DNA of 64,000 nucleotides from assembly GCA_029237695.1 (NCBI GenBank), contig CM055265.1:118435078-118499077 (forward strand), written 5' to 3'. Made by a program: the position numbers and the translations under genes. The notes under the pieces are model-generated. The model did not search any database and was not told the origin of the DNA. It saw only the letters and a program-made list of their open reading frames with translations. How positions within the stretch are numbered: the stretch's first letter is position 1; every line of letters begins with the position of its first letter. This stretch comes from Conchocele bisecta. Its lineage: Eukaryota > Mollusca > Bivalvia > Lucinida > Thyasiridae. Below, piece after piece: positions 18,530 through 47,643 of this stretch.

Positions 18530-20150
18530 AAATACCATAATACAATTTCTCCTGTCTCATCACATTTAGTATGCAGACTGGTCATAAATACAGAGATCCC
18601 ATTTCTCCTGTCACAGTCACATAGTAATGACCAGACTGGTCACCCCAAATACCATAGTACCAATTTCTCCTGTCACAGTCCACAAAGTAGAACCAGACTG
18701 GTCACAAATACCAACAGTACCCTATTTCGACCTGTCACCAGCATATACGGACCGGATTGAACATCACATATACATACTACATTCTCCTATCACCTTCTTC
18801 ACATAGAGTAGTGACCAGACTGGTAACAAATATCATACTACCCTATCGTATCCTGTCACAGTCACGTAGTAGGACCAGGACTGGTCACAAATACGATATA
18901 CCCATTTCTCCGTCACAGTCACAATAAGTTTTGGGACCGGGACTGGTCCAAATACCCATTATACCCAATTTCTCCTGTCACAGTCAATAGTAATGACCAG
19001 ACTGGTCATAAATACCATAGTTTTATATTTCTCCTGTCACAGTCCCTTAGGCCCGATTTCTGGTACACAAACCTACCTTATTACAAATTCTTTTCCTGTT
19101 CCACATACGTACGGAAAAAAGATGGGTCACAAATAACCATGTTCCATGTCCTATCACACATAAATAGGGACGGGGATTGTCACCAAATACCATTAGCACA
19201 TTTCTTACCTGGTCTAGTCACTAGTAATGACAGATCTGGTAACAAATAACCAATACTACCCATTTCTTCCTATCACTACACCTAGTAGGGACCGGGACTG
19301 GGTCAACAAAATCATAAGGTACCATTTTCTTCTATCACAGGTCACATAGTAAGGGACCGGACAGGTCACAAATACATACCCATTTTCTCCTTGTCACGTC
19401 ACATTAGTATCCCAGGACGGTCACAATTAACATACTACCCATTTCTCCTGTCACAGTCACAAATAGGTATGACCAGACTGGTCACAAATACCAATTACCA
19501 ACCATTGGTTCACCTGGTTCATTCACATAGTATGGACCGATGGTTCTATACCATATACCCATTTCTCCTGTCACTGTCACATAGGGTCCGATGGACAGAT
19601 GTCATACTAGGTACCAATTTCTCCTGTCACATATATGTGCGAGAGCTGTCATATACATGTACCAATTCTTCTATCACTGACATAGTGGGACCGGACTGGT
19701 ACAATACCAGTACCAATTTCTCCTGTCAGTCACATAGTAATGACAAGATGGTCACAAATACCATACTCCATCTCCTGTCACTACACAGCAGGGACGAGGA
19801 TGGTACAAATACCATAGTCCCATTCTTCTATCACAGTCATGTAGGGACCGACAGGTCACAAAATCCAAAAACCCATTTCTCTTGTCAACGTCAGTAGAGG
19901 GGCCGGAAGGTCACAAATACCTATACCCATTTTCTGTCACAGTCATTTAGTAATGACCAGCTGGTCACAAATACCATACCACCTGTACCTGTCATTACAT
20001 AGTAGGGACCGAACTGTTCACCAATCCATACTACCCATCCTGTCACAGTCACATAGTAATGACCAGACTGGTCACAAATACCATACCGCCCATTTCTCCT
20101 GTATCAGTCGAAGTTACAAAATACTACAATTTCTCCTGTCACAGTCACAT
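18530..20150. other. Indel-rich patch inside the satellite (likely low sequence quality)
   Basis: Units here carry multiple single-base insertions and deletions each (for example 'GGGACCGGGACTGGTCC'), unlike units before 18500 and after 20200, which are mostly substitution variants. The 168 aa and 144 aa open frames across 19391-20387 result from this scrambling. Confidence 0.6.
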
Positions 20151-20659
20151 ACTAATGACCAGACTGGTCAAAAATACCATACTACCCAATTATCATGTCA
20201 CAGTCACATAGAAGGGACCAAACTGATCACAAATACCATACTACCCATTTCACCTATCACTACACATAGTAGGGATCAGACTGGTCACAAATACCATAGT
20301 ACCCATGTATTCTATCACAGTCACATAGTAGGGACCAGACTGATCACAAATACCATACTACCCATTTCTCCTGTTACAGTCACATAGTAGGGACCGGACT
20401 GGTCACAAATACCATACTACCCATTTCAGCTGTCACTGCACATAGTAGGGACCAGACTGGTCACAAATACCATAGTATAGTACCCATTAATTCTATCACA
20501 GTCACATAGTAGGGACCAGACTGATGAGAAATACCATAGTACCCATTTATACTATCACAGTCACATAGTAGGAACCAGACTGGTCACAAATACCTTACTA
20601 CCCATTTCGCCTGTCACTACACATAGTAGGGACCAGACTGGTCACAAATACCATAGTAA

Positions 20660-21430
20660 CCCAATTCTCCTGTCAGTCACATAGTATGGACCAGACAGTC
20701 CTCAAATACCATAGTAACCCATTTCTTCTATCACAAGTCACAGTAGGGACCGGACTGGTCAAAAATACCATTACTACCCATTTTCACTGTCTGCACATAG
20801 TAAGGGACCAGACTGTCAAATACCATAGTATAGTACCCATTAATTCTATCACAGTCCACATAGTAGGGACCAACTGATAGAGAAATACATAGTACCATTT
20901 AAATACCTTACACCCATTTGGGCGGTGTTTTCCAATACACATAGTAGGGACAGACTGAAACACAAAATACCATGTTCATTCTCCTTTTCTCAGTCACATA
21001 GTAGGGAACCAGACTGGTTCAAATCCATAGTACACCATTTCTTCTGTTCACAGTCACCATAGTAGGGACCCGGGAGCTGGTTTCACAAATACCATATACC
21101 CATTTCAGGCTGTCACTGCACATAGTAGGGACCAGACTGGTCACAAATACCATAGTAGTACCCATTTAATTATATCACAGTCACATAGTAGGGACAGACT
21201 GTGAGAAATACCATAGTATCACAAATACCTATCACAGTCACATAGGTAGGAACCAGACTGGTCACCAAATACCTTATTACATTTCGCCTTGTCATTACAA
21301 CATAGTAGGGACCAGACCTGGTCACAAATACCATGGTACCCCACTCGTTCTCAGTCAACCAAAGTAGGGAACCCCGACTATCACAAAATACCCATTTTCT
21401 ACACCATTTTATTCTATCACAGTCAATAGT

Positions 21431-21462
<32 letters not shown>

Positions 21463-21540
21463 AAGACTGACACAAATACCATACTACCCATTTCTCCTGT
21501 TACAGTAAAAACTAGTAGGGAACCGGACTCTCCACAAAAC
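20660..21540. other. Second indel-rich patch with a 30 bp G homopolymer
   Basis: Again dense single-base indels, and an uninterrupted G run from 21432 to 21461 inside a satellite unit. The proline-rich minus-strand frame at 21170-21475 is a translation of that G run. Confidence 0.65.
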
Positions 21541-21779
21541 TATCTCACCCCATTTCTCTGTCACAGTCACATAGTAGGGACCGGACTGGTCACAAATACG
21601 ATACTACCCATTTCTCCTGTTACAGTCACATAGTAGGGACCGGACTGGTCACAAATACGATACTACCCATTTCACCTGTCACTACACATAGTAGGGACCA
21701 GACTGGTCACAAATACGATACTACCCATTTCTTCTATCACAGTCACATAGTAGTGACCGGAACGGTCACAAATACCATA

Positions 21780-22310
21780 TTACCCATTTATCCCATCTCA
21801 GTCACATAGTAGTGACCGGACTGGTCACAAATACCATACTACCCATTTATCCCATCTCAGTCACATAGTAGTGACAGGACTGGTCACAAATACCATACTA
21901 CCCATTTATCCCATCTCAGTCACATAGTAGTGACCGGACTGATCACAAATACAATACTACCCATTTATCCCATCTCAGTCACATAGTAGTGACCGGACTG
22001 GTCACAAATACCATACTACCCATTTATCCCATCTCAGTCACAGAGTAGTGACCGGACTGGTCACAAATACCATACTACCCATTTATCCCATCTCAGTCAC
22101 ATAGTAGTGACCGGACTGGTCACAAATACCATATTACCCATTTATCCCATCTCCGTCACATAGTAGTGACCGGACTGATCACAAATACAATACTACCCAT
22201 TTATCCCATCTCAGTCACATAGTAGTGACCGGACTGGTCACAAATACCATACTACCCATTTATCCCATCTCAGTCACATAGTAGTGACCGGACTGGTCAC
22301 AAATACGATA
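21780..22310. repeat. Homogenised block of one satellite variant
   Basis: About nine successive 59 bp units share the variant 'CCCATTTATCCCATCTCAG' and 'TAGTAGTGACCGGACTGG' and differ at only one or two positions, indicating recent local amplification. Confidence 0.85.
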
Positions 22311-22823
22311 CTACCCATGTTTCCTGTCACTACACATAGTAGTGACCAGACTGGTCACAAATACGATACTACCCATTTCTTCTATCACAGTCACATAGTA
22401 GGGACCAGTCTGGTCACAAATACCATAGTACCCATTTCTTCTATCACAGACACATAGTAGGGACCAGTCTGGTCACAAATACCATAGTACCCATTTCTTC
22501 TATCACAGTCACATAGCAGGGGCCAGTTTGGTCACAAATACCATAGTACTCATTTCTTCTATCACAGTCACATACATGTAGTAGGGACCAGTCTGGTCAC
22601 AAATACCATAGTACCTATTTCTTCTATCAGTGTCACATAGTAGGGACCAGTCTGGTCACAAATACCATAGTACCCATTTCTTCTATCACAGGCACATAGT
22701 AGGGACCGGACAGGTCACAAATACCATACTACCCATTTCTCCCGTCTCAGTCACATAGTAGGGACCGGACTGGTCACAAATACCATACTACCAATTTCTC
22801 CTGTCACAGTCACATAGTAGGGA

Positions 22824-24720
22824 CCAGACAAATACAATAGTACACATTTCTCCTGTCACTACACATAGTAGTGACCAGACTGGTCACAAATACCATAGTA
22901 CCCATTTCTTCAGTCACAGTTACATAGTAGGGACCGGACTAGTCACAAATACCATACTACACATTTCTCATTTCACAGTCACATAGTAGGGACCAGACTG
23001 GTCACAAATACCATGGTACCCATTCATCCTGTCACAGTCACATAATAGGGGCCAGACTGGCCACACATACCATACTACCAATTTTTCCTGTCACAATCAC
23101 ATAGTAGGGACCAGACTGGTCACAAATACCATGCTACCCATTTCTCCTGCCACAGTCACATAGTAGGGACCGGACTGGTCACAAATACCATACTACCCAT
23201 TTCTCATGTCACTACACATAGTAGGGACCAGTCTGGTCACAAATACCATAGTACCCATTTATCCTATCACAGTCACATAGTAGGAACCAGACTGGTCACA
23301 AATACCTTACTACCCATTTCTCTTGTCACTTTCACATAGTAGGGACCGGACTGGTCACAAATACCATAGTACCCATTTTTCCTGTCACAGTCACGTAGTA
23401 GGGACCGGACTGGTCACAAATACCATACTACCCATTTCTCATGTCTCAGTCACGTAGTAGGGACCGGACTGGTCACAAATACCATAGTACCCAATTCTCC
23501 TGTCACAGTCACATAGTAGGGACCGGACTGGTCACAAAACCATACTACCCATTTCTCTTGTCACAGTCACATAGTAGGGACCAGTCTGGTCACAAATACC
23601 ATAGTACCCATTTCTTCTATCACAGTCACATAGTAGGGACCAGTTTGGTCACAAATACCATAGTACTCATTTCTTCTATCACAGTCACATAGTAGGGACC
23701 AGTCTGGTCACAAATACCATAGTACCAATTTCTTCTATCAGTGTCACATAGTAGGTACCAGTCTGGTCACAAATACCATAGTACCCATTTCTTCTATCAC
23801 AGTCACATAGTAGGGACCGGACAGGTCACAAATACCATACTACCTATTTCTCCCGTCTCAGTCACATAGTAGGGACCGGACTGGTCACAAATACCAAACT
23901 ACCCAATTCTCCTGTCACAGTCACGTAGAAGGGACCGGACTGGTCACAAATACCATACTACCCATTTATCCTGTCACAGTCACATAGTAGGGAACGGACT
24001 GGTCACAAATACCATACTACCCATTTCTCCTGTCACAGTCACATAGTAGGGACCAGACAAATACCATATTACACATTTCTCCTGTCACTACACATAGTAG
24101 TGACCAGACTGGTCACAAATACCAGAGTACCCATTTCTTCAGTCACAGTCACATAGTAGGGACCGGACTAGTCACAAATTCCATACTACACATTTATAAT
24201 TTCACAGTCACATAGTAGGGACCAGACAGGTCACAAATACCATGGTACCCATTCATCCTGTCACAGTCACATAATAGGGGCCAGACTGGCCACACATACC
24301 ATACTACCAATTTTTCCTTTCACAATCACATAGTAGGGACCAGACTGGTCACAAATACCATGCTACCCATTTCTCCTGTCACAGTCACATAGTAGGGACC
24401 GGACTGGTCACAAATACCATACTACCCATTTCTCATGTCACTACACATAGTAGGGACCAGTCTGGTCACAAATACCATAGTACCCATTTATCCTATCACA
24501 GTCACATAGTAGGAACCAGACTGGTCACAAATACCTTACTACCCATTTCTCTTGTCACTTTCACATAGTAGGGACCGGACTGGTCACAAATACCATAGTA
24601 CCCATTTTTCCTGTCACAGTCACGTAGTAGGGACCGGACTGGTCACAAATACCATACTACCCATTTCTCATGTCTCAGTCACGTAGTAGGGACCGGACTG
24701 GTCACAAATACCATTCTACC
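22824..24720. repeat. ~1.23 kb higher-order duplication within the satellite
   Basis: The deleted unit 'GGGACCAGACAAATAC' followed by the same series of diagnostic variants occurs near 22824 and again near 24053, 1229 bp apart. The matching series (for example the 'GGCCAGACTGGCCACACATA' unit) continues for about 0.6-0.7 kb in both copies. Confidence 0.8.
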
Positions 24721-26040
24721 CATTTCTCATGTCTCAGTCACGTAGTAGGGACCGGACTGGTCACAAATACCACAGTACCCATTTCTCCTGTCACAGTCAC
24801 ATAGTAGGGACCGGACTGGTCACAAAAAAACATACTACCCATTTCTCTTGTCACACTCACATAGTAGGGACCAGACTGATCGCAAATACCATAGTACCCA
24901 TTTCTCCTGTCCCTACACATAGTAGGGACCTGACTGGTCACAAATACCATACTTCCCATTTCTCCTGTCACTACACACAGTAGGGACCGGACTGGTCACA
25001 AATACCATAGTACAAATTGCTCATGTCACAGTCACATAGTAGGGAGCAGACTGGTCACAAATACCATAGTACACATTTCTCATGTCACAGTCACATAGTA
25101 GGGACCAGACTGGTCACAATACCATGGTACCCATTCATCCTGTCACAGTCACATAGTAGGGGCCAGACTGGTCACACATACCATACTACCAATTTCTCCT
25201 GTCACAATCACATAGTAGGGACCGAACTCGTCACGAATACCATATTGCACATTTCTCCTGTGACAGTCACATTGTAGGGACCAGACTGACCACAAATACC
25301 ATACTACCCATTTCTCCTGTCACATTCATATAGTACATGTAGGAGCCAGACTGGTCACAAATATCATAGTACCCATTTATCATGTCACAGTTACATAGTA
25401 CATGTAGGAGCAAGACTGGTCACAAATACCATAGTACCCATCTCTCCTGTCACAGTCACATAGTAGGGGCCAGACAGGCCACATATACCAGAGTTAACAT
25501 TTATCCTGTCACAGTCACATATTAGGGGCCAGACAGGCCACAAATACCATACTACCCATTTCTCCTGTCACAGTCACAAAGTAGGGACCAGACTGGTCAC
25601 AAATACCATACTACCCATTTCTCCTGTCACAGTCACATAGTAGGTGCCAGACTGGTCACAAATACCATACTACCAATTTCTCCCGTCACAGTCACATAGT
25701 AGGGACCGAACTGGTTACAAATACCATAGTACCCATTTCTCCTGTCACAGTCACATAGTAGGGACCAGACTGGTGACACATACCATACTACCCATTTCTC
25801 TTGTCACCGTCACATAGTATGGACCAGATTGGTCACAAATACCATACTACCCATTTCTCCTGTCACCGTCACATAGTAGGGACCAGATTGGTCACAAATA
25901 TCATACTACCCATTGCTCTTGTCACAGTCACATAGCAGGGACCAGACTGGTCACAAATACCATACTGTCCATTTCTCCTGTCATGGTAGGGACCAGACTG
26001 GTCACAAATACCATACTACCCATTTCTCCTGTCACTACAC

Positions 26041-27675
26041 ATACTAGAATATCTACAAACATTCTCCAATCACAGTCATTGATCAGAGACTAAACTGACC
26101 AGAAATGTCACATTCCCCATATCTCCAGTCACAGTCATAACTCGGGAGCTAGACTGACATAAATATAATTAGTCCCTATTTCTCTATTTACAGTCATGAC
26201 TCTGGAGCTACATTGACAATACATATAATTAGTCCCCGTATCTCCAGTCACAGTCATGACTCTAGAGCTACATTGACAATAATATAATTAGTCCCCGTAT
26301 CTCCAGTCACAGTCATGACACTGGAGCTACATTGACAATAAATATAATTAGTCCCCGTATCTCCAGTCACAGTCATGACACTGGAGCTACATTTAATAAA
26401 ATTAGTCCCCGTATCTCCAGTGACAGTCATGACACTGGAGCTACATTGACAATAATATAATTAGTCCCCGTATCTCCAGTCACAGTCATGACACTGGAGC
26501 TACATTGACAATAATATAATTAGTCCCCGTATCTCCAGTCACAGTCATGACACTGGAGCTACATTGACAGTAATATAATTAGTCCCCGTATCTCCAGTCA
26601 CAGTCATGACACTGGAGCTACATTGACAGTAATATAATTAGTCCCCGTATCTCCAGTCACAGTCATGACACTGGAGCTACATTGACAATAATATAATTAG
26701 TCCCCGTATCTCCAGTCACAGTCATGACACTGGAGCTACATTGACAATAAATATAATTAGTCCCCATATCTCCAGTGACAGTCATGACACTGGAGCTACA
26801 TTGACAATAATATAATTAGTCCCCGTATCTCCATTCACAGTCATGACACTGGAGCTACATTGACAATAATATAATTAGTCCCCGTATCTCCAGTCACAGT
26901 CATGACACTGGAGCTACATTGACAATAATATAAGTAGTCCCCGTATCTCCAGTCACAGTCATGACACTGGAGCTACATTGACAATAAATATAATTAGTCC
27001 CCGTATCTCCAGTCACAGTCATGACACTGGAGCTACATTGACAATAATATAATTAGTCCCCGTATCTCCAGTCACAGTCATGACACTGGAGCTACATTGA
27101 CAATAAATATAATTAGTCACCGTATCTCCAGTCACAGTCATGACACTGGAGCTACATTGACAATAATATAATTAGTCCCCGTATCTCCAGTCACGGTCAT
27201 GACACTGGAGCTACATTGACAATAAATATAATTAGTCCCCGTATCTCCAGTCACAGTCATGACACTGGAGCTACATTGACAATAATATAATTAGTCCCCG
27301 TATCTCCAGTCACAGTCATGACACTGGAGCTACATTGACAATAAATATAATTAGTCACCGTATCTCCAGTCACAGTCATGACACTGGAGCTACATTGACA
27401 ATAATATAATTAGTCCCCGTATCTCCAGTCACGGTCATGACACTGGAGCTACATTGACAATAAATATAATTAGTCCCCGTATCTCCAGTCACAGTCATGC
27501 CACTGGAGCTACATTGACAATACATATAATTAGTCCCCGTATCTCCAGTCACAGTCATGACTCTGGAGCTACATTGACAATAAATATAATTAGTCCCCGT
27601 ATCTCCAATCACAGTCATGACTCTGGAGCTAGACTGGCTATACTATAATTAGTCCCCGTTTCTCCAGTCACTGGA
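26041..27675. repeat. Diverged 59-60 bp satellite, same family
   Basis: Roughly 26 copies of a 59/60 bp unit: CCCCGTATCTCCAGTCACAG, TCATGACACTGGAGCTACAT, TGACAATAATATAATTAGT. It keeps the period and the shared core CTCC-GTCACAGTCA of the preceding array. Units between 26041 and 26220 are intermediate, so the second array evolved from the first. Frames at 27376-27648 are repeat by-products. Confidence 0.95.
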
Positions 27676-29765: not shown

Positions 29766-30304
29766 AACAAGAGGGTCATGATGGCCCTAATTCGCTCACC
29801 TGACTCCATGAACACCAGAGGAGAATGTGGCATTGAGTTCATATGTGTTTTAAAACAATTGTGCTATTTTTGATGGCAGTCATCTTGGATTAATCGATGA
29901 CTCATTTTACCAAATATGAAAATGCTTCACCCAAGGATCTTAACTTACTATGAAGTTTGGCCAGCATCGGCCATGTGGTTCCTAAGAAAAAGACGTTCAA
30001 AATCTCGAATAAATGGACCTTTTGGAGGCCATCATGGATGACACAATCATCCGATTCCGACAAATATTGCACCAGAGCAATCGCCTCATCGATACCTTCA
30101 ATTTGATATATGACATGAGCATATTTGGTCAAAAATAAAATTTGACCCCACGGGCCACGCCCATTTTTGACCCCGGGGTCACCATTGTTAACACCTTTGA
30201 AAGAGCATTCTACGTCGATCATTCCTACCAAGTTTCGTCGAAATCCGTCTGGCGAAATCCGGCATGACCTCCAATTTCGACAAAAAATGTACCAGAGCGA
30301 TCGC
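29766..30304. mobile_element. Dispersed GCTCACCTGA-type repeat, left part
   Basis: It starts AACAAGAGGGTCATGATGGC followed by TTCGCTCACCTGA. It contains the phrases TTTGACCCCACGGGCCACGC, AAGTTTCGTCGAAATCCG and GATACCTTCAATTTGATATA that recur at 433-442 bp spacing in the right part (35870-37098). The element is interrupted at 30304/30305 by the large palindrome. No intact gene is seen; the 174 aa minus-strand frame at 29902-30426 crosses the insertion boundary and is not real. Confidence 0.8.
30300..30304. repeat. Target-site duplication ATCGC, left copy
   Basis: ATCGC immediately precedes the element tip AGTAGTATA. The same five bases follow the opposite tip at 35870-35874, and the flanking dispersed repeat resumes in register ('GAGCGATCGCCTCTTTGATACC' is restored if one copy is removed). 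Confidence 0.85.
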
Positions 30305-30532
30305 AGTAGTATATAGGGAGTCAAAATGATACCACCAAAGCTGGAAGCGTCATTGACCCTCGTTACAGCTCCCAACAGTATCGAAAAACGTGTTTTTGGC
30401 CAATAATATAAACTAGCCACCAACACTGAAATATTTTAAACCGCGAAACCGTCTTGTTGTACACCCACCATACATAGTGAAAATAAATTGAAATTGAGAT
30501 TGAAAATAATGGCTTCGAAAATCCAACGAACA

Positions 30533-31033
30533 AAAGTACTCCCCAGCACCCTCGAAAAACCAGGTTTTTTTGCAAAGAGAAGAGCAGAATGATACCACCA
30601 GAGGTGGCACCGTTTTCACCACCATACAATACTCCCAACACCCACGAAAAATCGGGGAAAAATTTCAGAAAAACCCAAATACATCGAACTACAACGAACT
30701 ACAGACACTACAACCAACTACAGTATGTATCCACATTTGGGACAAAACATCCACAATCGTACTATCACCTAATATCCACAATCGAACTACAGACTCTACA
30801 ACCAACTACAGACGAACGACAGATAGACTTGTCGTGGCCTCCCAAGAGACAAACAGAAATGATACCACCAATTTGTGTATTTGGACACATTTGGGAAAAA
30901 TCCAATGAACAAAAGTACTCCCCAGCACCCTCGAAAAACAGGCTTTTTTGTGGAGAAAATCAGAATGATACCACCAGAGGTGGCACCGTTTCCACCACCA
31001 CACGACACTCCCAACACCCACGAAAAATCGGGA
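30533..31033. repeat. ~376 bp direct repeat in the tip region, left arm
   Basis: The block starting AAAAGTACTCCCCAGCACCC and running through ATGATACCACCAGAGGTGGC to CCACGAAAAATCGGG occurs at about 30533-30658 and again at 30909-31033. Short CAACTACAG/GAACTACAG reiterations lie between. The right arm carries the mirror image (about 35140-35640). Open frames across this region translate the repeats and differ in every phase. Confidence 0.8.
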
Positions 31034-31141
31034 ACGGATTTCCTAAAAACCCAAATACATCGAACTACAACAAACTACAGGCACTACAACCAACACAGAC
31101 GAACGACAGATAGAACTGCGTACGAGAACAATCTCGTTCTA

Positions 31142-31462
31142 CTATTTCTTCTGGTGTAGCTCTCGGAAGCAGGATTCCGCTATTTTTCTTTTGCGTTTTT
31201 CTGTCTCTAGGGACGCCTGTAGTTCCGCAACCTGGCTTTCTAGTTCGACAACCCGGCTTTCTAGTTCGGCAGTCTGGAGTTGTGTTCTCGAGGGTGCGGT
31301 ACACCGTTTCTGTTTGTGTCTGCAAAGCGTCTGGGAACTGGAGAAATGTTTTCCACAACCTTCGCACAGGAATGCAGGAGTACTGCATCTCGTCTTTCTC
31401 CCGATGTGTCGTTGCAAGTTGGCCTTCTTGGCAAAAGTTCTACCACACGTTTCGCACTCCAT
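31142..31462 (-). CDS. Zinc-finger/coiled-coil protein, left-arm copy (106 aa)
   Basis: The product is the same as at 34713-35033 in the right arm, with no amino-acid difference that I can see. Two zinc-finger-like modules lie near residues 3-26 (Cys3, Cys6, His19, Cys26) and 33-54 (Cys33, Cys36, His49, Cys54), both ending in Cys rather than a second His. A heptad-rich coiled coil follows at about 60-100, ending in a basic tail. The start is the ATG directly before the first finger; upstream in-frame sequence is only 78 bp repeat. Tandem C2HC fingers plus a coiled coil suggest a nucleic-acid-binding, self-associating regulator; the specific role is unknown. Small proteins of this style occur in large DNA viruses and their integrated relatives (general knowledge, not searched). 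Confidence 0.65.
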   Translation of the reverse strand: MECETCGRTFAKKANLQRHIGRKTRCSTPAFLCEGCGKHFSSSQTLCRHKQKRCTAPSRTQLQTAELESRVVELESQVAELQASLETEKRKRKIAESCFRELHQKK

Positions 31463-31489
31463 TTTCCCAATAGTATTTTTCTGTTCAAA

Positions 31490-32065
31490 TGGGAAAATCA
31501 CAAGAATTTTTTGTCTCCCAAAAGGCAAACAGAAATGATACCATCCAATTGTACACATTCGGACTTTTGGGAAAATCGAAGAAAAAATTTGTCTCCCAAG
31601 AGTAAAACAGAAATGATACCACCCAATTGTACACATTCAGACTTTTGGGAAAAGTGTAGAAAAAATTCGTCTCCCAAGAAGCAAACAGAAATGATACCAC
31701 CCATTTGTGTATTTGGACACATTTGGGAAAAGTGCAGGAGAAATTCGTCTCCCAAGAGGCAAACAGAAATGACACCACCCAATTGTCCACATTTGGTCTT
31801 TTGGGAAAGTGGAAGAAAAAATTTGTCTCCCAAGAGCAAAACAGAAATGATACCACCCAATTGTCCACATTTGGACTTTTGGGAAAGTGTAGAACAAATT
31901 TCTCTCCCAAAGGATGTAGAAAAAATGATACCACCCAATTGTACACATTTGGACTTTTGGGAAAAGTGTAGAAAAAATTCGTCTCCCAAGAGGCAAACAG
32001 AAATGATACCACCCAATTGTCCACATTTGGACTTTTGGGAAAGTCGAAGAAAAAATCGTCTCCCA
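31490..32065. repeat. 78 bp tandem repeat, seven phased copies, left arm
   Basis: ATGATACCACCC-type motifs start at 31535, 31613, 31691, 31769, 31847, 31925 and 32003, exactly 78 bp apart each time, although the bases between vary (GTCTCCCAAGAGGCAAACAG, ATTGTCCACATTTGGACTTT and so on). Because 78 is divisible by three, both strands stay open and give 26-residue protein repeats in several frames (for example 31280-32113 plus and 31498-32151 minus). The lack of one preferred frame argues for a cis-acting DNA role. The array lies between the two genes of the arm. Confidence 0.85.
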
Positions 32066-32156
32066 AGAGCAAAACCACATCGAAAAACAGAAAACCTCTC
32101 CCAAAGGAGGTAGAAATACAACTCGAAAAAAGACAAAGAACTTTTTTCCAAAATGG

Positions 32157-32856
32157 CTACTGCATGTAGAACGGGTCGCGACTACCAGAGTGCTGGTGTA
32201 CGGAGTCGCTAGTTTCGTTTTTCCCATTCGGCGTACCGGACTGTTTTGCGGAGTGCACGAACTGGGTGTCGGAGTCTGGTTTACTCTTCCAGAGTCTACG
32301 GGCCTCTAGAGACACGAATGGGAACAGTGGTCTGCAGACCGCGTACGCCACCACAGAGACCCCCAGCCACCACTTCGCATTCTCTACGGTTCTCCAGATG
32401 TCGTGCACCTCCCACCCGGATTTCGTCTGGCACTCTTCTTCCTCCGGGCACTCGTCTTTCTTCGGACACTCGGAATCGGCATCGTCGAAAATTGCGTCCA
32501 ACAGTCTACGTTCCAACGCGTCTAACTGGTTCTCCAAACGTCTCTCCATGTCGGACAGGTGCGTCGATTCTTCGAACGAGCTGGCGTTTCGTGCATCTTC
32601 TAGTAGATCCGTGGGGAACTCGGTGGGGCCCGCAAAACCAGGCGCGGTCACCCTGTGTACTACGGGGGTGGGGGTTTCTTGTTCTTGGGAGGTTTCTTCG
32701 GGCTTTGTACTACGCTCTACATCGGCATCGTCCCATATTTTTCGAAGCCTGGGCACTACCGATCCCGTACTTCTTCTTTGTTTCGCTGGCTGTAGCCTTC
32801 CCACGGGTGGAAATAATTTCTAGAATATTTTTCGGAGACAAGTAGGTTTTTGGCAT
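32157..32856 (-). pseudogene. Helix-turn-helix/membrane protein gene, left-arm copy, frameshifted
   Basis: This is the mirror copy of the gene at 33319-34017, but with one extra C in the run read as GTGCCCAGGC on the minus strand near 32750 (the right arm has GTGCCAGGC). The insertion separates the N-terminal ~35 codons from the rest, which stays open to 32157. One conservative substitution (Gln for Arg in the coiled coil) is also visible. The break may be genuine or a sequencing error. Confidence 0.75.
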
Positions 32857-33058
32857 GCTTGCAAACGCTTCTATCTAGATAGGGAACATTTGTCCAACAT
32901 GGAATTCCCAAATTATTCGAAATGGTCGAAATACTTGTTCGCGGTGCTCGGATTGCTCGGATTGCGCGCCAGATTGCTCGGATTGCTCGCCAGGAAATCC
33001 AGTCCTCTCGGGAAGGTCGAAATGCCTGCTCGCGATTCCCAGGGGGCTCGGGCTCTCC

Positions 33059-33116
33059 AGGGTGCTCAGTTTGCTTCCCAGAATTTCTATTTTTGCTATC
33101 CTTGTTGGCTAGAAAT
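33059..33116. other. 58 bp unpaired loop at palindrome centre
   Basis: The arms end at 33058 (GGGCTCTCC) and restart at 33117 (GGAGAGCCC). The intervening bases, including TTCTATTTTTGCTATCCTTG, have no inverted partner. The arms next to the loop are rich in short ATTGCTCGG reiterations. The mirrored open frames at 32756-33253 and 32922-33419 are by-products of the symmetry. Confidence 0.85.
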
Positions 33117-33318
33117 GGAGAGCCCGAGCCCCCTGGGAATCGCGAGCAGGCATTTCGACCTTCCCGAGAGGACTGGATTTCCTGGCGAGCAATCCGAGCA
33201 ATCTGGCGCGCAATCCGAGCAATCCGAGCACCGCGAACAAGTATTTCGACCATTTCGAATAATTTGGGAATTCCATGTTGGACAAATGTTCCCTATCTAG
33301 ATAGAAGCGTTTGCAAGC

Positions 33319-34017
33319 ATGCCAAAAACCTACTTGTCTCCGAAAAATATTCTAGAAATTATTTCCACCCGTGGGAAGGCTACAGCCAGCGAAACAAAGA
33401 AGAAGTACGGGATCGGTAGTGCCAGGCTTCGAAAAATATGGGACGATGCCGATGTAGAGCGTAGTACAAAGCCCGAAGAAACCTCCCAAGAACAAGAAAC
33501 CCCCACCCCCGTAGTACACAGGGTGACCGCGCCTGGTTTTGCGGGCCCCACCGAGTTCCCCACGGATCTACTAGAAGATGCACGAAACGCCAGCTCGTTC
33601 GAAGAATCGACGCACCTGTCCGACATGGAGAGACGTTTGGAGAACCGGTTAGACGCGTTGGAACGTAGACTGTTGGACGCAATTTTCGACGATGCCGATT
33701 CCGAGTGTCCGAAGAAAGACGAGTGCCCGGAGGAAGAAGAGTGCCAGACGAAATCCGGGTGGGAGGTGCACGACATCTGGAGAACCGTAGAGAATGCGAA
33801 GTGGTGGCTGGGGGTCTCTGTGGTGGCGTACGCGGTCTGCAGACCACTGTTCCCATTCGTGTCTCTAGAGGCCCGTAGACTCTGGAAGAGCAAACCAGAC
33901 TCCGACACCCAGTTCGTGCACTCCGCAAAACAGTCCGGTACGCCGAATGGGAAAAACGAAACTAGCGACTCCGTACACCAGCACTCTGGTAGTCGCGACC
34001 CGTTCTACATGCAGTAG
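33319..34017 (+). CDS. Helix-turn-helix / coiled-coil / single-pass membrane protein (232 aa)
   Basis: The frame starts at an ATG just outside the central ~260 bp and runs to a stop before the 78 bp array. Residues about 6-42 (LSPKNILEIIS ... KKKYGIGSARLRKIW) look like a helix-turn-helix. Residues 50-95 are acidic, Pro/Thr-rich linker. About 98-122 is a heptad coiled coil (SDMERRLENRLDALERRL). A Cys/Glu/Asp-rich stretch lies at about 123-145. Residues 162-182 (WWLGVSVVAYAVCRPLFPFV) form one hydrophobic span. The C-terminus is Ser-rich. No catalytic motif is recognised. A DNA-binding head with a membrane span and coiled coil is unusual; viral packaging, anchoring or regulation are guesses. The left arm carries a frameshifted copy. 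Confidence 0.6.
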   Translation: MPKTYLSPKNILEIISTRGKATASETKKKYGIGSARLRKIWDDADVERSTKPEETSQEQETPTPVVHRVTAPGFAGPTEFPTDLLEDARNASSFEESTHLSDMERRLENRLDALERRLLDAIFDDADSECPKKDECPEEEECQTKSGWEVHDIWRTVENAKWWLGVSVVAYAVCRPLFPFVSLEARRLWKSKPDSDTQFVHSAKQSGTPNGKNETSDSVHQHSGSRDPFYMQ

Positions 34018-34114
34018 CCATTTTGGAAAAAAGTTCTTTGTCTTTTTTCGAGTTGTATTTCTACCTCCTTTGGGAGAGGTTTTCTGTTTTTCGATGTGGT
34101 TTTGCTCTTGGGAG

Positions 34115-34680
34115 ACGATTTTTTCTTCGACTTTCCCCCCAAAAGTCCAAATGTGGACAATTGGGTGGTATCATTTCTGTTTGCCTCTTGGGAGACGAAT
34201 TTTTTCTACACTTTTCAAAAGTCCAAATGTGTACAATTGGGTGGTATCATTTTTTCTACATCCTTTGGGAGAGAAATTTGTTCTACACTTTCCCAAAAGT
34301 CCAAATGTGGACAATTGGGTGGTATCATTTCTGTTTTGCTCTTGGGAGACAAATTTTTTCTTCCACTTTCCCAAAAGACCAAATGTGGACAATTGGGTGG
34401 TATCATTTCTGTTTGCCTCTTGGGAGACGAATTTCTCCTGCACTTTTCCCAAATGTGTCCAAATACACAATTGGGTGGTATCATTTCTGTTTGCCTCTTG
34501 GGAGACGAATTTTTTCTACACTTTTCCCAAAAGTCTGAATGTGTACAATTGGGTGGTATCATTTCTGTTTTACTCTTGGGAGACAAATTTTTTCTTCGAC
34601 TTTCCCAAAAGTCCGAATGTGTACAATTGGGTGGTATCATTTCTGTTTGCCTCTTGGGAGACAAAAAATTCTTGTGATTT
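34115..34680. repeat. 78 bp tandem repeat, right arm
   Basis: This is the mirror image of the left-arm array, seen here as GGTGGTATCATTTCTGTTTG units separated by AAAGTCCAAATGTGGACAAT-type blocks. Small differences from the left arm (CCCCCC near 34135, a shortened TTTTCAAAAG near 34214) break the exact 78 bp phasing at two places. The open frames over it are again multi-frame repeat translations. Confidence 0.85.
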
Positions 34681-34712
34681 TCCCATTTGAACAGAAAAAT
34701 ACTATTGGGAAA

Positions 34713-35033
34713 ATGGAGTGCGAAACGTGTGGTAGAACTTTTGCCAAGAAGGCCAACTTGCAACGACACATCGGGAGAAAGACGAGATGCAGTACTCCTG
34801 CATTCCTGTGCGAAGGTTGTGGAAAACATTTCTCCAGTTCCCAGACGCTTTGCAGACACAAACAGAAACGATGTACCGCACCCTCGAGAACACAACTCCA
34901 GACTGCCGAACTAGAAAGCCGGGTTGTCGAACTAGAAAGCCAGGTTGCGGAACTACAGGCGTCCCTAGAGACAGAAAAACGCAAAAGAAAAATAGCGGAG
35001 TCCTGCTTCCGAGAGCTACACCAGAAGAAATAG
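34713..35033 (+). CDS. Zinc-finger/coiled-coil protein, right-arm copy (106 aa)
   Basis: It starts at the ATG encoding MECETCGRTF, just after ACTATTGGGAAA. Finger 1 is C-x2-C-x12-H-x6-C and finger 2 is C-x2-C-x12-H-x4-C, followed by the heptad run 'ELESRVVELESQVAELQA' and a Lys/Arg-rich end. The identical protein is encoded in the left arm. Conservation of both copies without a stop or frameshift suggests either very recent duplication or selection. The array of 78 bp repeats lies upstream, where a promoter would be. No specific function can be assigned. Confidence 0.65.
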   Translation: MECETCGRTFAKKANLQRHIGRKTRCSTPAFLCEGCGKHFSSSQTLCRHKQKRCTAPSRTQLQTAELESRVVELESQVAELQASLETEKRKRKIAESCFRELHQKK

Positions 35034-35869
35034 TAGAACGAGATTGTTCTCGTACGCAGTTCTATCTGTCGTTCGTCTGTGTTGGTTGTAGTGCCTGTAG
35101 TTTGTTGTAGTTCGATGTATTTGGGTTTTTCGGAAATCCGTTCCCGATTTTTCGTGGGTGTTGGGAGTGTCGTGTGGTGGTGGAAACAGTGCCACCTCTG
35201 GTGGTATCATTCTGATTTTCTCCACAAAAAAGCCTGTTTTTCGAGGGTGCTGGGAAGTACTTTTGTTCGTTGGATTTTTCCCAAATGTGTCCAAATAAAC
35301 AAATGGGTGGTATCATTTCTGTTTGTCTCTTGGGAGGCCACGACAAGTCTATCTGTCGTTCGTCTGTAGTTGGTTGTAGAGTCTGTAGTTCGATTGTTGA
35401 TATTAGGTGGTAGTACGATTGTGGATGTTTTGTCCCAAATGTGGATACATACTGTAGTTGGTTGTAGTGTCTGTAGTTCGTTGTAGTTCGATGTATTTGG
35501 GTTTTTCTGAAATTTTTCCCCGGTTTTTCGTGGGTGTTGGGAGTATTGTATGGTGGTGAAAACGGTGCCACCTCTGGTGGTATCATTCTGCTCTTCTCTA
35601 TGCAAAAAACCTGGTTTTTCGAGGGTGCTGGGGAGTACTTTTGTTCGTTGGATTTTCGAAGCCATTATTTTCAATCTCAATTTCAATTTGTTTTCACTAT
35701 GTATGGTGGGTGTACAACAAGACGGTTTCGCGGTTTAAAATATTTCAGTGTTGGTGGCTAGTTTATATTATTGGCCAAAAACACGTTTTTCGATACTGTT
35801 GGGAGCTGTAACGAGGGTCAATGACGCTTCCAGCTTTGGTGGTATCATTTTGACTCCCTATATACTACT

Positions 35870-35874
35870 ATCGC
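35870..35874. repeat. Target-site duplication ATCGC, right copy
   Basis: It directly follows the right tip ...TATACTACT and is identical to 30300-30304. Confidence 0.85.
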
Positions 35875-43941: not shown

Positions 43942-44919
43942 TTAAAATTGCGACATCCGTATATACGAATGTAATGCACTGGATTTCCAGCGGCCCATTT
44001 TCTGAATTACGAGTTCCGGTATACCTGCGGCGGCCGCGGACGTAGCCGCTCCTATGCGAAAACTATGGCTTTTTTATAAAGACGGGTCATACCCAATGAA
44101 CGATATTGCATCACGTAAACTTTTCGCGACATATGAAGTTGTCACTGGCACTTTATCCTGGAATTGGAAAAGCGGGCCCGTCGTGTGTGTAGCCATGGTT
44201 AGATACTGCTTTAAGCAATGAACGGGACAAATGGCCAGTTCTGAACCTGATCGCAAGCATAACGTGACCGGATCTGACGTTGTTTTGTGCTTGTAATGTC
44301 TAAGAATAATCTGCATCGCAACTGGGGTTACACACGAATTATTTGGCAAAAAAAAGTGACATCGGCAAATTGTACGACCTTGTACTTTTGCTCTTTATTT
44401 CTGCATGCAATTTCGCCCATACGCAGAAAGGCATGAAACGCGAGAACAAATATTGCTTGACATAACCGCCTATGAAATTGAGACACAACGGTGTGACGTA
44501 GTGCTTGTACTAGTCTACTGAGAATTGTTTTAGTGATCGGTAAACGTTTGTCGGTGCTGGCCTTCAAATTATGAGCACCTTTTTGCAATTAATTTTTTAA
44601 TGTAAAAAGAAGCCGTCGGATCAGATACCTGTATAAGCTTATGAATGAATGAGATGGCCGATATGTGTGAAGATATAGTCGACGGACTATATCCCTGCTC
44701 GAACATGTGGGCGATATAATTTGCTACCATGCTTTCCGAGGATGGAAATACATTGGAAGACATACACGTCAATCGAACGAATGTTACATACGCTTGCAAT
44801 GATCTAATATACGATGTCCACGTTGACGATGAAAGCGACGCCTTGAATAACTTAGCCTTTACACATGTTAGATTAGCAATATGCTGTCTGGTAACGGGAT
44901 AGGGTGCTTGTCCAGCCAA
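43942..44919 (-). pseudogene. Tyrosine recombinase (Ngaro YR), interrupted by two frameshifts and one stop
   Basis: This is the element's integrase-equivalent, a phage-integrase-fold tyrosine recombinase. The N-terminal SAM-like domain lies at 44919-44569. The next frame (44588-44328) has the box I arginine in 'HAFLRMGEIAC'. The last part (44349-43942) has the box II His-x-x-Arg (HSFR), 'GRWKS' and the nucleophile tyrosine in 'HSYIR'. All catalytic positions I can place are present. Three lesions interrupt it: a frame change at the five-A run near 44580, another at the eight-base homopolymer near 44347-44354, and an in-frame TAA beside an A run near 44073. Each lies at or beside a homopolymer, so sequencing error is a real alternative to decay. 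It overlaps the RT frame start by about 52 bp. Confidence 0.85.
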
Positions 44920-46625
44920 GGTGCAATTCGTCTGGCTTCCTGAAATTGGAATCGAGACAATTTGTCAGCGACTACGTTATGTTTTCCAGGAACATGCTGA
45001 GCCCGAAATAAAATATTGCACGTCAGACACGCTACCACTAGACGTCTTACCAGTGACATTAACACCTTATGTTTTGAAGATAGTTTATTTACGATATCAA
45101 CCACGGCTGAATTGTCAGACAAGAACATTATCTTATGATTGGCTAATTTATAACCCCACAGCTCCACCGCGATAACGATTGGTAGTAACTCCTTAATTGT
45201 TATAGATTCATTTCTAAGAGAATCCGGGCATAACCCGGCAATCCACTGTGAACCCAAAATAGCGGCAAATCCACCATGAACGCCCGCTGCGTCGGTATAT
45301 AACTTTATGTATTCGGAATTTAACCAACGACGATTGAGAAATACGCTTTTACCATTGTATTTAGAAATAAATTTCAGCCATGCGTGAATGTCGGCTCTCG
45401 CTTCATTAGTGAGACGTATGTGATGATGTGGTTTTTGCACACCCATAGTTAGTTGTATCAATCTTCGTAGAAAAGCGCGACCTGGCACAACAACAGAACA
45501 CGCAAAGCTAAGAAGGCCTATCAGCGATTGCATTTCCTGCAATGTTGCTTTCTTTTTAGAATGAAATCGCTCTAATTCTTGTTTAATTTTCTCGACCTTT
45601 TCCTTTGGAAGACGCACCTCCATTCTCGAAGTATCTAACTCATAACCGTACACCGTGATTACAGTGGTAGGATTGACAGTTTTTGAATGTTTGATTGGTA
45701 TACCGACATTCCTGCATAGCGCAATAAAATTATCTAAATCCGTTTGACATTGATTCGACAACGCATCATTAACAAACACGAAGTCATCGATTAAAAGCGA
45801 CACGCCACCAGCTCCAAACTTGTTTTCCATTACCCACTGTAATGCAGTGCTGAGAGTTTCGAAAATTGAGCACGATGATGAACAACCCATGGGCAAACAT
45901 TTGTCGTAATAATATTTACCCTCCCAACTAAAACCGAGGCATTCATAATCCTTTGGTGACACCGGGATAATCCGATAAGCGCATTCGATATCTGATTTCG
46001 CTACTAAACAATTAGGACCATATTGCTGAATGAGATTAATTACTGTATCAATGTAGTCATAATGGACAACACACGAACTTCGCGGTATGTTAGCATTAAC
46101 AGAATGTTCATCTCCGTTAGATAAGTCGTGTATTAATCTAAACGTACCCGCTTCCTTTTTTGGTATAAGACCAATTGGAGAACACAACAATGATGCAAAT
46201 GGCGGTGTATCAAAGGGGCCAGCTATACGACCTTGATCTAACTCACTGTTCAATTTTTGCTGTACGATATGTTTGTTTTCTAGCGCAGAAGTGTGATTTG
46301 TTGCTAACCTGTGCGTCCGTTGACCTGAATAACCAATTGAGAAACCGTTAGTGAAACCGTGAATTAAATATTCTGTCAAGCTTACATCATACCCTCGCAA
46401 AATTTCAGACATCGGGCTGATATGTATCGGTGTGGGAAGTTTAGTCTCTATATCACTACCAGATTGATTTCCATTAATCCCGCTTTTTACAGGCGGTAAC
46501 GCTGTGCTTTCCGTTGCATTTTGCACACAGATGCTTGAATTTACATGCGTCTGGTCGCTTACATTTCCCGGATTCGCAAAATCCCCAACAGTAGCCAATT
46601 GGGAAACGTTTTGAGCGTGTTTCAC
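44868..46625 (-). CDS. Reverse transcriptase / RNase H (Ngaro pol), 585 aa
   Basis: It copies the element's RNA into DNA and removes the RNA strand. The reverse transcriptase palm is clear: 'IGLIPKKEAGTFRLIHDLS' at 151-169, motif A 'KSDIECAYRI' with Asp212, motif B 'CLPMGCSSSCSIFE' at 243-256, and motif C 'LLIDDFVFV' with Asp280/Asp281. RNase H follows with Asp445 (LYTDAAG), Glu479 (TIKELLP), Asp504 (LSDNSAV) and Asp554 (VPGKHNVVADKLSR). No integrase or protease is present, as expected for DIRS-order elements. The frame is uninterrupted. It overlaps the gag frame by 152 bp in a different phase, suggesting frameshifting or internal initiation. Confidence 0.93.
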   Translation of the reverse strand: MKHAQNVSQLATVGDFANPGNVSDQTHVNSSICVQNATESTALPPVKSGINGNQSGSDIETKLPTPIHISPMSEILRGYDVSLTEYLIHGFTNGFSIGYSGQRTHRLATNHTSALENKHIVQQKLNSELDQGRIAGPFDTPPFASLLCSPIGLIPKKEAGTFRLIHDLSNGDEHSVNANIPRSSCVVHYDYIDTVINLIQQYGPNCLVAKSDIECAYRIIPVSPKDYECLGFSWEGKYYYDKCLPMGCSSSCSIFETLSTALQWVMENKFGAGGVSLLIDDFVFVNDALSNQCQTDLDNFIALCRNVGIPIKHSKTVNPTTVITVYGYELDTSRMEVRLPKEKVEKIKQELERFHSKKKATLQEMQSLIGLLSFACSVVVPGRAFLRRLIQLTMGVQKPHHHIRLTNEARADIHAWLKFISKYNGKSVFLNRRWLNSEYIKLYTDAAGVHGGFAAILGSQWIAGLCPDSLRNESITIKELLPIVIAVELWGYKLANHKIMFLSDNSAVVDIVNKLSSKHKVLMSLVRRLVVACLTCNILFRAQHVPGKHNVVADKLSRFQFQEARRIAPWLDKHPIPLPDSILLI

Positions 46626-47643
46626 GAAAAGAACGATTATTTCTATTACTATTCTCAGAAAAGCGATAATTTATACCTTTCGTAACGCATTGCTGAAACA
46701 GCGCATTGAGCATGGATTTCCACGTAACTTGACCGTGATTCAACAACGTACGAAATGTCTCGTCGTAGTACCGGAAGGCATGCGGACCATGCTCACGAGC
46801 GATTGATCGAATCCGATTTTCATAATTCAACAGATCTAGATTTGACTCTGGAAATTTCTGAAGATACACATATGAAAATATGGTAAACGCTTCACACCAT
46901 TGAAATATGGTTAAAGGATATTTATGCGTCTGCTTTCGTGACAGATTGACAACCTTACTATCTGCGCTGTTGTTAACAGTAATCGTATACGATTCATCTT
47001 CATTTACGTTGAGCAAGTCACGAAAATCAATAGGTTCGCGACGCCAAATCCGAGTTTTAACTTTTTCTGGAACTGCGTAATCTAGCGGCAACGCTTCTGC
47101 AACATCTAATACACCAGCGCAGGAATTTGACAGCTGTGACCTCGCACTCTCTGTGCTATTAATAGCTGTACCTTCGGTGTGTTGCTTTCCAGCCAACACG
47201 GAGTTAAGGATTGTTAACACATCGCTGTTGGGTTGGTCCATTCCCAATTCCGTTGGTGACATCAATGGGGACACCGGGTCAGATGTACTTATGAGATCAG
47301 GTACATTACTGGGGCCTGGCGTGGGCGTAACCAGATCATTTGGGGGCAAAACCACTCCACTAGACTGTATTTGGGTAGTACATATAGGATCTGGAATGTT
47401 ACTGGGGCCTGGTGTATTAACCAAGTTAGATGTAGGCATAACAAGGCCACGCGACTGCAATTGGCTAATTATCTCAGTGGCCAGCGCGGACATGTCCACC
47501 TGAGTCGATTGAATTGGCGGCGCCAAGTCCGTGGCAATTGGTAGTCCTGAACCTGGGTCCTCAGTCGACAACCTCCCTGCACGCCGCCGCTTTGTCTGTG
47601 CTGGCGCCTTTCCGGACCCTGGAGTCTGTTTTCGCTTCGGCAT
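46474..47643 (-). CDS. Gag-like protein with C-terminal zinc motif (Ngaro), 389 aa
   Basis: The likely nucleocapsid or structural protein. The N-terminus is basic (MPKRKQTPGSGKAPAQTKRR), followed by a long Pro/Ser/Thr-rich low-complexity region to about residue 150 and a globular middle ('YPLTIFQWCEAFTIFSYVYL', 'AREHGPHAFRYYDETFRTLL'). At the very C-terminus is a Cys/His cluster ('YCWGFCESGKCKRPDACKFK', then H-LCAKCNGKHSVTACKK) typical of DIRS/Ngaro gag proteins. The start is the first ATG after the untranslated gap. The end overlaps the RT frame. Confidence 0.85.
   Translation of the reverse strand: MPKRKQTPGSGKAPAQTKRRRAGRLSTEDPGSGLPIATDLAPPIQSTQVDMSALATEIISQLQSRGLVMPTSNLVNTPGPSNIPDPICTTQIQSSGVVLPPNDLVTPTPGPSNVPDLISTSDPVSPLMSPTELGMDQPNSDVLTILNSVLAGKQHTEGTAINSTESARSQLSNSCAGVLDVAEALPLDYAVPEKVKTRIWRREPIDFRDLLNVNEDESYTITVNNSADSKVVNLSRKQTHKYPLTIFQWCEAFTIFSYVYLQKFPESNLDLLNYENRIRSIAREHGPHAFRYYDETFRTLLNHGQVTWKSMLNALFQQCVTKGINYRFSENSNRNNRSFRETRSKRFPIGYCWGFCESGKCKRPDACKFKHLCAKCNGKHSVTACKKRD

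What the first reader, a model, noticed from the sequence alone, without database searches (positions are those of the whole stretch)
30305..35869. Gene-bearing 5.6 kb palindromic mobile element
Seen: two ~2.75 kb near-identical inverted arms, 58 bp loop, matching AGTAGTATA tips and a 5 bp target duplication in a repeat whose reading is restored when the element is removed. Each arm carries the same two protein genes and the same phased repeat array. Known fold-back elements usually lack such paired genes, and Polintons have a long unique core between their inverted ends. Inference: a previously undescribed non-autonomous or minimal DNA element, perhaps related to Polintons or integrated DNA viruses.
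Basis: partly seen in the sequence, partly recalled or inferred. Interest (0 to 1): 0.88.

Follow-up and report, generated by a model that had tools for sequence, protein, structure and literature searches.

The report
Palindromic, gene-carrying Polinton satellite element
A 5.6-kb piece of mobile DNA made almost entirely of two mirror-image copies of the same two genes turns out to be one of a large family in this animal genome that shares its ends with, and probably hitch-hikes on, virus-like Polinton elements.

Summary
At 30305-35869 lie two 2754-bp inverted arms (21 mismatches in 2750 aligned bases), a 57-nt loop and a 5-bp target duplication. It is not an assembly artefact: the arm matches some 30 further places in the same genome; 17 of 20 fetched have inverted arms over 500 nt, and 20 of 21 two-tip loci have perfect 5-bp duplications. 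The 32-bp tip occurs about 9,050 times. One hundred listed tips form 33 facing pairs: 22 are 13.6-20.4 kb apart, 11 shorter. Five short ones were read: all have inverted arms and gene B. Pieces of four long ones gave a type-B DNA polymerase and weak capsid and integrase matches: they look like Polintons. Gene A is homologous to a helper zinc-finger gene near the helper's tip. Gene B ends in the same seven residues as a helper protein. No satellite read encodes a detectable helper enzyme. Best reading: a stable, non-autonomous, palindromic Polinton satellite, copied and integrated in trans. Origin of the palindrome by snap-back in protein-primed replication is inferred.

The parts
30300..30304 (.). 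left copy of the 5-bp target site duplication (ATCGC)
   Evidence: same pattern in 16 of 17 two-tip loci and 4 of 4
30305..33058 (.). left arm, 2754 bp
30305..30336 (+). 32-bp tip shared with the Polinton helpers; carries the AATGATACCACC motif
31142..31462 (-). gene A, left copy: two C2H2-type zinc fingers + coiled coil, 106 aa, open
31513..32075 (-). 78-bp tandem array containing the tip motif, left copy
32157..32855 (-). gene B, left copy; frame broken near codon 36 (start inferred by mirror from the right copy)
33059..33115 (.). 57-nt central loop; the same arm-to-loop junction is seen in 11 of 20 fetched loci by my reading
33116..35869 (.). right arm, 2754 bp
33319..34017 (+). gene B, right copy, 232 aa, open: N-terminal three-helix region, coiled coil, hydrophobic segment, C-terminus RDPFYMQ
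34099..34665 (+). 78-bp tandem array, right copy
34713..35033 (+). gene A, right copy, 106 aa, open
35838..35869 (-). 32-bp tip, right end
35870..35874 (.). right copy of the 5-bp target site duplication (ATCGC)

Best explanation
This is an inserted copy of a gene-bearing, non-autonomous satellite of a Polinton/Maverick family that has many copies in the same genome. SHOWN: copies in this genome share a 32-bp tip with ~17-kb elements, one of which was seen to encode a type-B DNA polymerase; 20 of 21 two-tip copies have perfect 5-bp target duplications; most copies read have long inverted arms (some are full palindromes, many have lost part of one arm beside the centre); gene A is homologous to a helper zinc-finger gene near the helper's tip; gene B here ends in the same seven residues as a helper protein. 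INFERRED: helper integrase and protein-primed polymerase recognise the shared tip and integrate and replicate the satellite in trans. The palindrome arose once or a few times, when synthesis starting at a helper end snapped back on itself, giving a genome with the same helper end on both sides. The displaced single strand of such a molecule folds into one long hairpin, and repair of that hairpin keeps the arms alike, so the element behaves as if it were all terminal inverted repeat. Protein A may bind the tip motif, which A-type satellites repeat in the 78-bp array. Protein B may link satellite DNA, through its N-terminal region, to helper particles or replication sites, through its hydrophobic segment and shared tail.
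For: Copies: the arm search gave 189 matches (33 of 1707 candidates scored), which I group into some 30 places besides this one, many as opposite-strand pairs. 17 of 20 fetched loci have inverted arms over 500 nt. Duplications: 16 of 17 and 4 of 4 perfect 5-bp; five of these lie in simple sequence (L023, L031, L032, L033, L043) and are weaker evidence. One 17-kb copy also has a 5-bp duplication, read from its two ends. Tip count: 4521 + 4534 at up to 3 mismatches, reversed-pattern control 0 + 0. Of 100 listed tips, 33 facing pairs within 40 kb against 3 outward and 0 same-strand; 22 pairs are 13.6-20.4 kb. Short pairs read: 5 of 11 (L033 from the arm search; L043-L046 by tip); all have inverted arms (longest 505-2637 nt) and gene B. 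Satellite ends: 34 of 38 ends of the arm-selected loci and the window carry the exact 32-mer, the other four differ by 1-2 bases. Helper: PF03175 3.9e-10; capsid-like 0.002 and integrase-like 0.03, both below cut-off. Gene A against helper piece L042: 43%, E 3e-14, match ending ~270 bp inside the helper's end. C-terminal RDPFYMQ in the window's gene B and in the helper protein. Purifying selection on gene B: mean dN/dS 0.40, 22 of 28 pairs 0.26-0.47 (eight open copies chosen). None of 14 helper proteins matches any of 25 satellite sequences at E<=1e-3.
Against: Trans-mobilisation was not observed; it rests on shared tips and duplications. Integrase and capsid matches are below Pfam cut-offs, and no ATPase or protease was identified in the pieces read. 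Of the 22 long pairs, gene-content pieces came from 4 and 450-bp ends from 5 more. Helper-satellite similarity beyond the 32-bp tip is weak (about 70-80% over 73-131 bp in the best matches), and the nine helper ends were chosen for an exact tip. 34 of 100 listed tips have no facing partner within 40 kb, though partners with a mismatch would not be listed. PF03175 matches scored in the first 64.7 Mb of C1 do not fall in the listed tip pairs, so other Polinton families probably exist too. Three of 20 fetched loci (L022, L024, L034) lack long inverted arms. Arms of one copy are sisters at the tip in 11 of 13 copies, but in 8 of 15, 4 of 8 and 2 of 4 for other segments, and in 5 of 16 copies the best match of an arm was another copy's arm (compared lengths differ). 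Other gene B copies end RDPFYME, SDPFYME or RDPFHMQ, the distant relative RDSFYME; outside the tail no similarity of B to the helper protein was found. dN/dS is 0.59-1.25 in 6 of 28 gene B pairs, 0.76 for gene A and 0.65 for A', with few changes. The hydrophobic segment of gene B is borderline (1.54), and weak in the 39%-identical relative (0.91).
Confidence: 0.8

Rival explanations
1. Repeated de novo snap-back (defective-interfering) products: each palindrome formed independently from a Polinton end and then integrated, with no lasting satellite lineage.
For: Palindromic defective genomes are a recalled by-product of protein-primed replication (adenovirus, yeast linear plasmids; recalled, no call). 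Two of three helper ends folded carry a near-perfect ~31-bp dyad that could fold back.
Against: Copies share genes that differ strongly from the helper's; the same loop junction is seen in 11 of 20 fetched loci by my reading; gene B dN/dS is 0.26-0.47 in 22 of 28 pairs; a 39%-identical gene B relative exists in another sequence set, and an A' relative on a contig of the same length.
Confidence: 0.08
2. A self-sufficient transposon with an unrecognised enzyme (for example gene B) that merely shares ends with Polintons.
For: Gene B has no relative above cut-off in Pfam, NCBIfam or PHROGs and looks selected.
Against: Gene B is predicted as a short helical region, coiled coil and hydrophobic segment, mostly at low confidence. 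Tip and 5-bp duplication are those of the ~17-kb elements.
Confidence: 0.07
3. A chance inverted duplication or fold-back artefact of assembly, not a mobile element.
For: Long perfect palindromes are classic assembly and amplification artefacts (general knowledge).
Against: Arms differ at 21 sites; 20 of 21 two-tip loci with different flanks carry matching 5-bp duplications.
Confidence: 0.01
4. The arms are kept alike by ordinary gene conversion in the chromosome, with cut-and-paste movement and no replication hairpin.
For: In this copy the inner ~1.25 kb has 2 mismatches against 19 in the outer ~1.5 kb, as conversion around the centre would give.
Against: No such gradient in other near-complete copies, e.g. 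L036 and L037. Both models can act together.
Confidence: 0.2

Closest known systems
Polinton/Maverick elements (animal Mavericks, adintoviruses)
   Same: (AGT)2//(ACT)2 ends, terminal inverted repeats, short target duplication; gene A homologous to a helper zinc-finger gene; RDPFYMQ tail shared with a helper protein.
   Different: 3.1-6.6 kb in the two-tip copies read, instead of 15-20 kb; 5-bp instead of 6-bp duplication; no detected polymerase, integrase or capsid; in full copies nearly all of the element is inverted repeat. (Tlr elements of Tetrahymena were once suggested to be non-autonomous Polinton derivatives, a view the authors of PMC4028283 argue against; passage.)
Transpovirons of mimiviruses (PMC7031253, passages seen)
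   Same: Small satellites with terminal inverted repeats whose common genes include a zinc-finger protein, in some clades a second paralogous one, and a small protein with a transmembrane segment.
   Different: About 7-kb elements associated with giant viruses, with a helicase and inverted repeats of only 380-520 nt; no sequence link was tested.
Symmetric defective adenovirus genomes and palindrome-hairpin derivatives of yeast linear plasmid pGKL1 (recalled; the listing showed no paper describing them)
   Same: Palindromes with the same protein-primed end on both sides, made by snap-back (recalled).
   Different: Laboratory or cytoplasmic deletion products without diverged genes of their own, and not a genomic repeat family (recalled).
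Foldback-like elements, Galileo (PMC4168063, passages seen)
   Same: Very long terminal inverted repeats.
   Different: P-superfamily transposase and 7-8-bp duplications; the genes here are inside the arms, in two copies, and the tips are Polinton-like.

Membership tests
Polinton/Maverick | 15-20 kb size | tested here: not met
   5565 bp in the window; 3110-6612 bp among two-tip satellite copies read; the tip-sharing long pairs are 13.6-20.4 kb
Polinton/Maverick | encodes protein-primed PolB, RVE integrase, ATPase, protease, capsid proteins | tested here: not met
   none of 14 helper proteins found in 25 satellite sequences; PolB, and weak integrase and capsid matches, in helper pieces; ATPase and protease not identified in either
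Polinton/Maverick | (AGT)2//(ACT)2 terminal motif and inverted repeats | tested here: met
   motif as quoted in PMC8097293 (passage)
Polinton/Maverick | 6-bp target duplication | tested here: not met
   5 bp in 20 of 21 two-tip loci and in one helper copy; 5-6 bp is quoted for Polinton-like viruses in PMC12220804 (passage)
Non-autonomous satellite of a Polinton | shares tips and target-duplication length with a resident autonomous family and lacks its enzymes | tested here: met
   helper duplication length rests on one copy
Non-autonomous satellite of a Polinton | moved or packaged by helper proteins | not testable with these tools
   needs an experiment
Foldback/Galileo (P superfamily) | P-type transposase, 7-8-bp duplications | tested here: not met
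   5-bp duplications; no transposase family matched by genes A or B
Transpoviron | helicase core gene and association with a giant virus | tested here: not met
   no helicase match for genes A or B; the element is inserted in a large contig of the assembly; giant-virus association not tested

The most novel reading that the evidence does not exclude
An endogenous hyperparasite of a virus-like animal element: a fully palindromic satellite, possibly more than a thousand copies, that keeps two dedicated genes under selection. One derives from a helper end gene. The other carries the helper's own C-terminal tag, so that protein B can dock satellite DNA into helper particles or replication sites. 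The replicating form is a single strand folded into one long hairpin.
Probability: 0.3. Interest if true: 0.9.

Novelty: new variant of a known kind. Interest (0 to 1): 0.75.

Why it matters
Whether animal Polintons behave as viruses, with particles and parasites of their own, is open. A satellite that copies their ends and keeps genes under selection would be evidence that they act in trans and are exploited, as virophages and transpovirons exploit giant viruses. It also gives a natural, many-copy example of long palindromes persisting in chromosomes, and a testable footprint (all-inverted-repeat genomes) of protein-primed replication in animals. The shared RDPFYMQ tail gives a concrete handle on what the helper protein does.

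Tried and rejected
Assembly artefact: rejected (arm mismatches, many copies, matching duplications). Chance palindrome: rejected. Independent foldback or P-superfamily element: rejected on duplications and tips. Gene B as a known enzyme: no Pfam, NCBIfam or PHROG relative above cut-off; Protein Data Bank profile matches only weak, best E 0.004; AlphaFold2 model too poor to search (mean pLDDT 47.6), so no fold search was made. Relatives of gene B, the tip, the helper polymerase, integrase-like frame and capsid-like protein in IMG/VR viral contigs: none found. One gene B relative (P0001, 39% identity) and one A' relative (P0002) in the protein collection; both come from contigs of 1528 nt, probably the same contig but not proven. 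The integrase-like piece and the capsid-like protein found no convincing solved structure. Arm-against-arm trees were clear only at the tip. Host species was not identified; passages of one clam genome paper (PMC8905726) were looked at without conclusion, as were passages of PMC2836005 on related integrases. In print: the listings showed, by title and start of abstract, no paper on a palindromic or non-autonomous Polinton satellite (searched the tip letters, another the yeast plasmid). These cover open-licence PubMed Central papers only, and Repbase was not available.
Full report
CHECK OF THE OBSERVATION. The window holds an inverted pair of 2754-bp arms at 30305-33058 and 33116-35869, separated by 57 nt. 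They align over 2750 bases with 21 mismatches and 8 gap columns. The 5-bp sequence ATCGC flanks both ends, and the interrupted sequence is a ~430-442-bp tandem repeat whose neighbouring copies are whole. The tip occurs only at the two ends of this element in the window, 0 in 100 shuffles. Gene A (106 aa, two zinc fingers; Pfam zf-C2H2 9.1e-10 for the longer ORF that contains it) is open in both arms. Gene B (232 aa) is open in the right arm and frame-broken in the left. A 78-bp tandem array lies between them in both arms.

IT IS A FAMILY. A search of the window's own assembly (1.89 Gb, 1196 contigs) with one arm gave 189 matches, 33 of 1707 candidates scored; I group the listed ones into some 30 places besides this one, many with matches on opposite strands. 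I fetched 20 of these places. 17 of 20 have inverted arms over 500 nt; L022, L024 and L034 do not. Counting the window, 17 loci have both tips within the stretch and 16 of these have a perfect 5-bp duplication; L039 matches at 4 of 5. In L023, L031, L032 and L033 the duplication lies in simple sequence. Of 38 ends of these loci and the window, 34 carry the exact 32-mer and 4 differ by 1-2 bases. By my reading, 11 of 20 loci share the loop junction of the window copy; many have lost part of one arm next to the centre, with different break points. Mean identity between copies is 98.7% for the gene A segment (35 sequences), 93.5% for gene B (22) and 93.3% for the outer 420 bp (31). For gene B, eight open copies, mean dN is 0.055 and mean dS 0.139 (ratio 0.40); 22 of 28 pairs lie at 0.26-0.47 and six at 0.59-1.25. 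For gene A the ratio is 0.76 and for A' 0.65, with few changes. A genome search with protein B had 3789 first-look candidates, 150 of them scored, 152 matches; of the 150 rows listed, 28 contain a stop. A search with protein A had 7050 candidates, of which 150 were scored.

THE HELPER. The 32-bp tip at up to 3 mismatches occurs 4521 times forward and 4534 times reverse; the reversed-pattern control gave none. The 100 listed places (all exact, first 64.7 Mb of contig C1) form 33 facing neighbour pairs within 40 kb, against 3 outward and 0 same-strand; 34 tips stay unpaired (partners with a mismatch are not listed). 22 pairs are 13.6-20.4 kb (median 17.4) and 11 are 3.1-10.8 kb. Five of the 11 short ones were read: L033 (fetched through the arm search) and L043-L046 (chosen by tip). 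All five have inverted arms, the longest being 505 nt in L033 and 739, 1550, 2637 and 1472 nt in L043-L046, and gene B. All five carry a second zinc-finger gene, A', in place of A; L043-L046 all have 5-bp duplications, that of L043 in a run of A. A sixth, at 12.67 Mb, has gene B on opposite strands by the protein search. For the long ones I read only pieces: two ends of one copy, single inner stretches of three others, and eight 450-bp left ends, three of them of the copies with an inner stretch. One right end encodes part of a type-B DNA polymerase (PF03175, 3.9e-10), and that copy has a ~201-bp inverted repeat at 98.5% and a 5-bp duplication. Other pieces gave a capsid-like protein (PF16903, 0.002, below cut-off), with a 48%-identical frame in a second copy, and an integrase-like stretch in two frames (PF00665, 0.03, below cut-off). 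Published Mavericks are 15-20 kb, encode polymerase, integrase, ATPase and protease, and those of vertebrates have (AGT)2//(ACT)2 or (AG)3//(CT)3 ends and 6-bp duplications (passages of PMC4028283, and PMC8097293). The ends here are AGTAGT...ACTACT; the duplication is 5 bp.

HOW SATELLITE AND HELPER ARE RELATED. The 23 ends aligned (9 helper, 14 satellite) agree over the first 32 bases; the helper ends were chosen for an exact tip, so the exact-tip count is the fairer measure for satellites. Beyond the tip, similarity is about 70-80% over 73-131 bp in the best matches. Of three helper ends folded, two form a near-perfect hairpin (-43.0 and -40.5 kcal/mol, RNA parameters) and one a weaker one (-17.4); in this satellite the inner half is degenerate (-14.7). 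None of 14 helper proteins, which did not include the zinc-finger frame below, matches any of 25 satellite sequences at E<=1e-3. Two gene links exist. Gene A matches a frame in L042 whose matched part ends ~270 bp from the helper's right end (43%, E 3e-14); that frame contains a stop in this copy. Gene B of the window and a helper protein with a hydrophobic segment both end in RDPFYMQ; other gene B copies end RDPFYME, SDPFYME or RDPFHMQ and the distant relative RDSFYME. A genome search with the helper protein (cut one residue before its end) had 10364 candidates; the best 150 were scored, are 93-100% identical, and all extend to query residue 166 or 167 of 167, i.e. into that tail; single residues were not shown. 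Outside the tail no similarity was found, so common descent of B and the helper protein is not shown.

MECHANISM. Shared tip, shared duplication length and absence of own enzymes make mobilisation in trans by the Polinton the simplest account. Polinton polymerase is protein-primed (PMC4028283, passage); for such replicons snap-back palindromes are recalled from adenovirus and yeast plasmids (no call). A molecule with the same helper end on both sides can be replicated from either, and its displaced strand folds on itself. Over the outer 1.8 kb or less, arms of one copy differ by 1.1-4.3% in 16 of 18 copies; L023 differs by 9.2%, and L033 could be compared over 67 bases only. In 11 of 16 copies with comparisons the own arm was the closest, in 5 (L023, L026, L029, L036, L040) another copy's arm was. 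At the tip, arms of one copy are sisters in 11 of 13 copies; other segments are less clear: 8 of 15, 4 of 8 and 2 of 4. This copy has fewer differences near its centre, others do not, so chromosomal conversion may add to, or replace, replication-linked homogenisation.

COMPARISON AND NOVELTY. It is not a Polinton by size, gene content or duplication length, and not a Galileo-type foldback (7-8-bp duplications, passages of PMC4168063). It works like a satellite. The gene content of transpovirons (zinc-finger protein, sometimes a paralogous second one, and a transmembrane protein; passages of PMC7031253) is a striking parallel, but no sequence link was tested. The listings showed no description of a palindromic Polinton satellite. 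I rate it a new variant of a known kind (non-autonomous derivative of a self-synthesising DNA transposon), unusual in being almost all inverted repeat and in keeping diverged genes that look selected.

LIMITS. The number of satellites genome-wide is an extrapolation (11 of 33 pairs are short; all five of those read have inverted arms and gene B). Host species, expression, particles and present activity were not tested.

Noticed in passing
window 1-1151 and 1914-3974: The same ~43-bp tandem repeat in opposite orientations on either side of a short spacer: an inverted pair of satellite arrays.
   Followed up: no
window 13795-27671: About 13.9 kb of mostly 59-bp tandem arrays with strong GC skew (-0.18 to -0.32 per 2-kb step between 14001 and 28000).
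   Followed up: no
window 44868-47643 (-): A reverse transcriptase ORF (RVT_1 8.4e-09) next to a 389-aa ORF without Pfam match; looks like a DIRS/Ngaro-type retrotransposon (type recalled).
   Followed up: partly
L050, L053 (helper left ends): Two of three helper ends folded begin with a near-perfect ~31-bp dyad able to form a terminal hairpin; possible recognition site or self-priming structure.
   Followed up: partly
L033, L039, L043-L046: A second zinc-finger gene (A', 117-124 aa where its full frame was listed) replaces gene A (L033, L043-L046) or accompanies it (L039); its relative P0002 comes from a contig of the same length (1528 nt) as the gene B relative P0001.
   Followed up: partly
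G000, many places: The polymerase-B matches scored in the first 64.7 Mb of C1 do not coincide with the listed exact-tip pairs, and one match elsewhere has a 1415-codon open frame, so further Polinton families are probably present.
   Followed up: no
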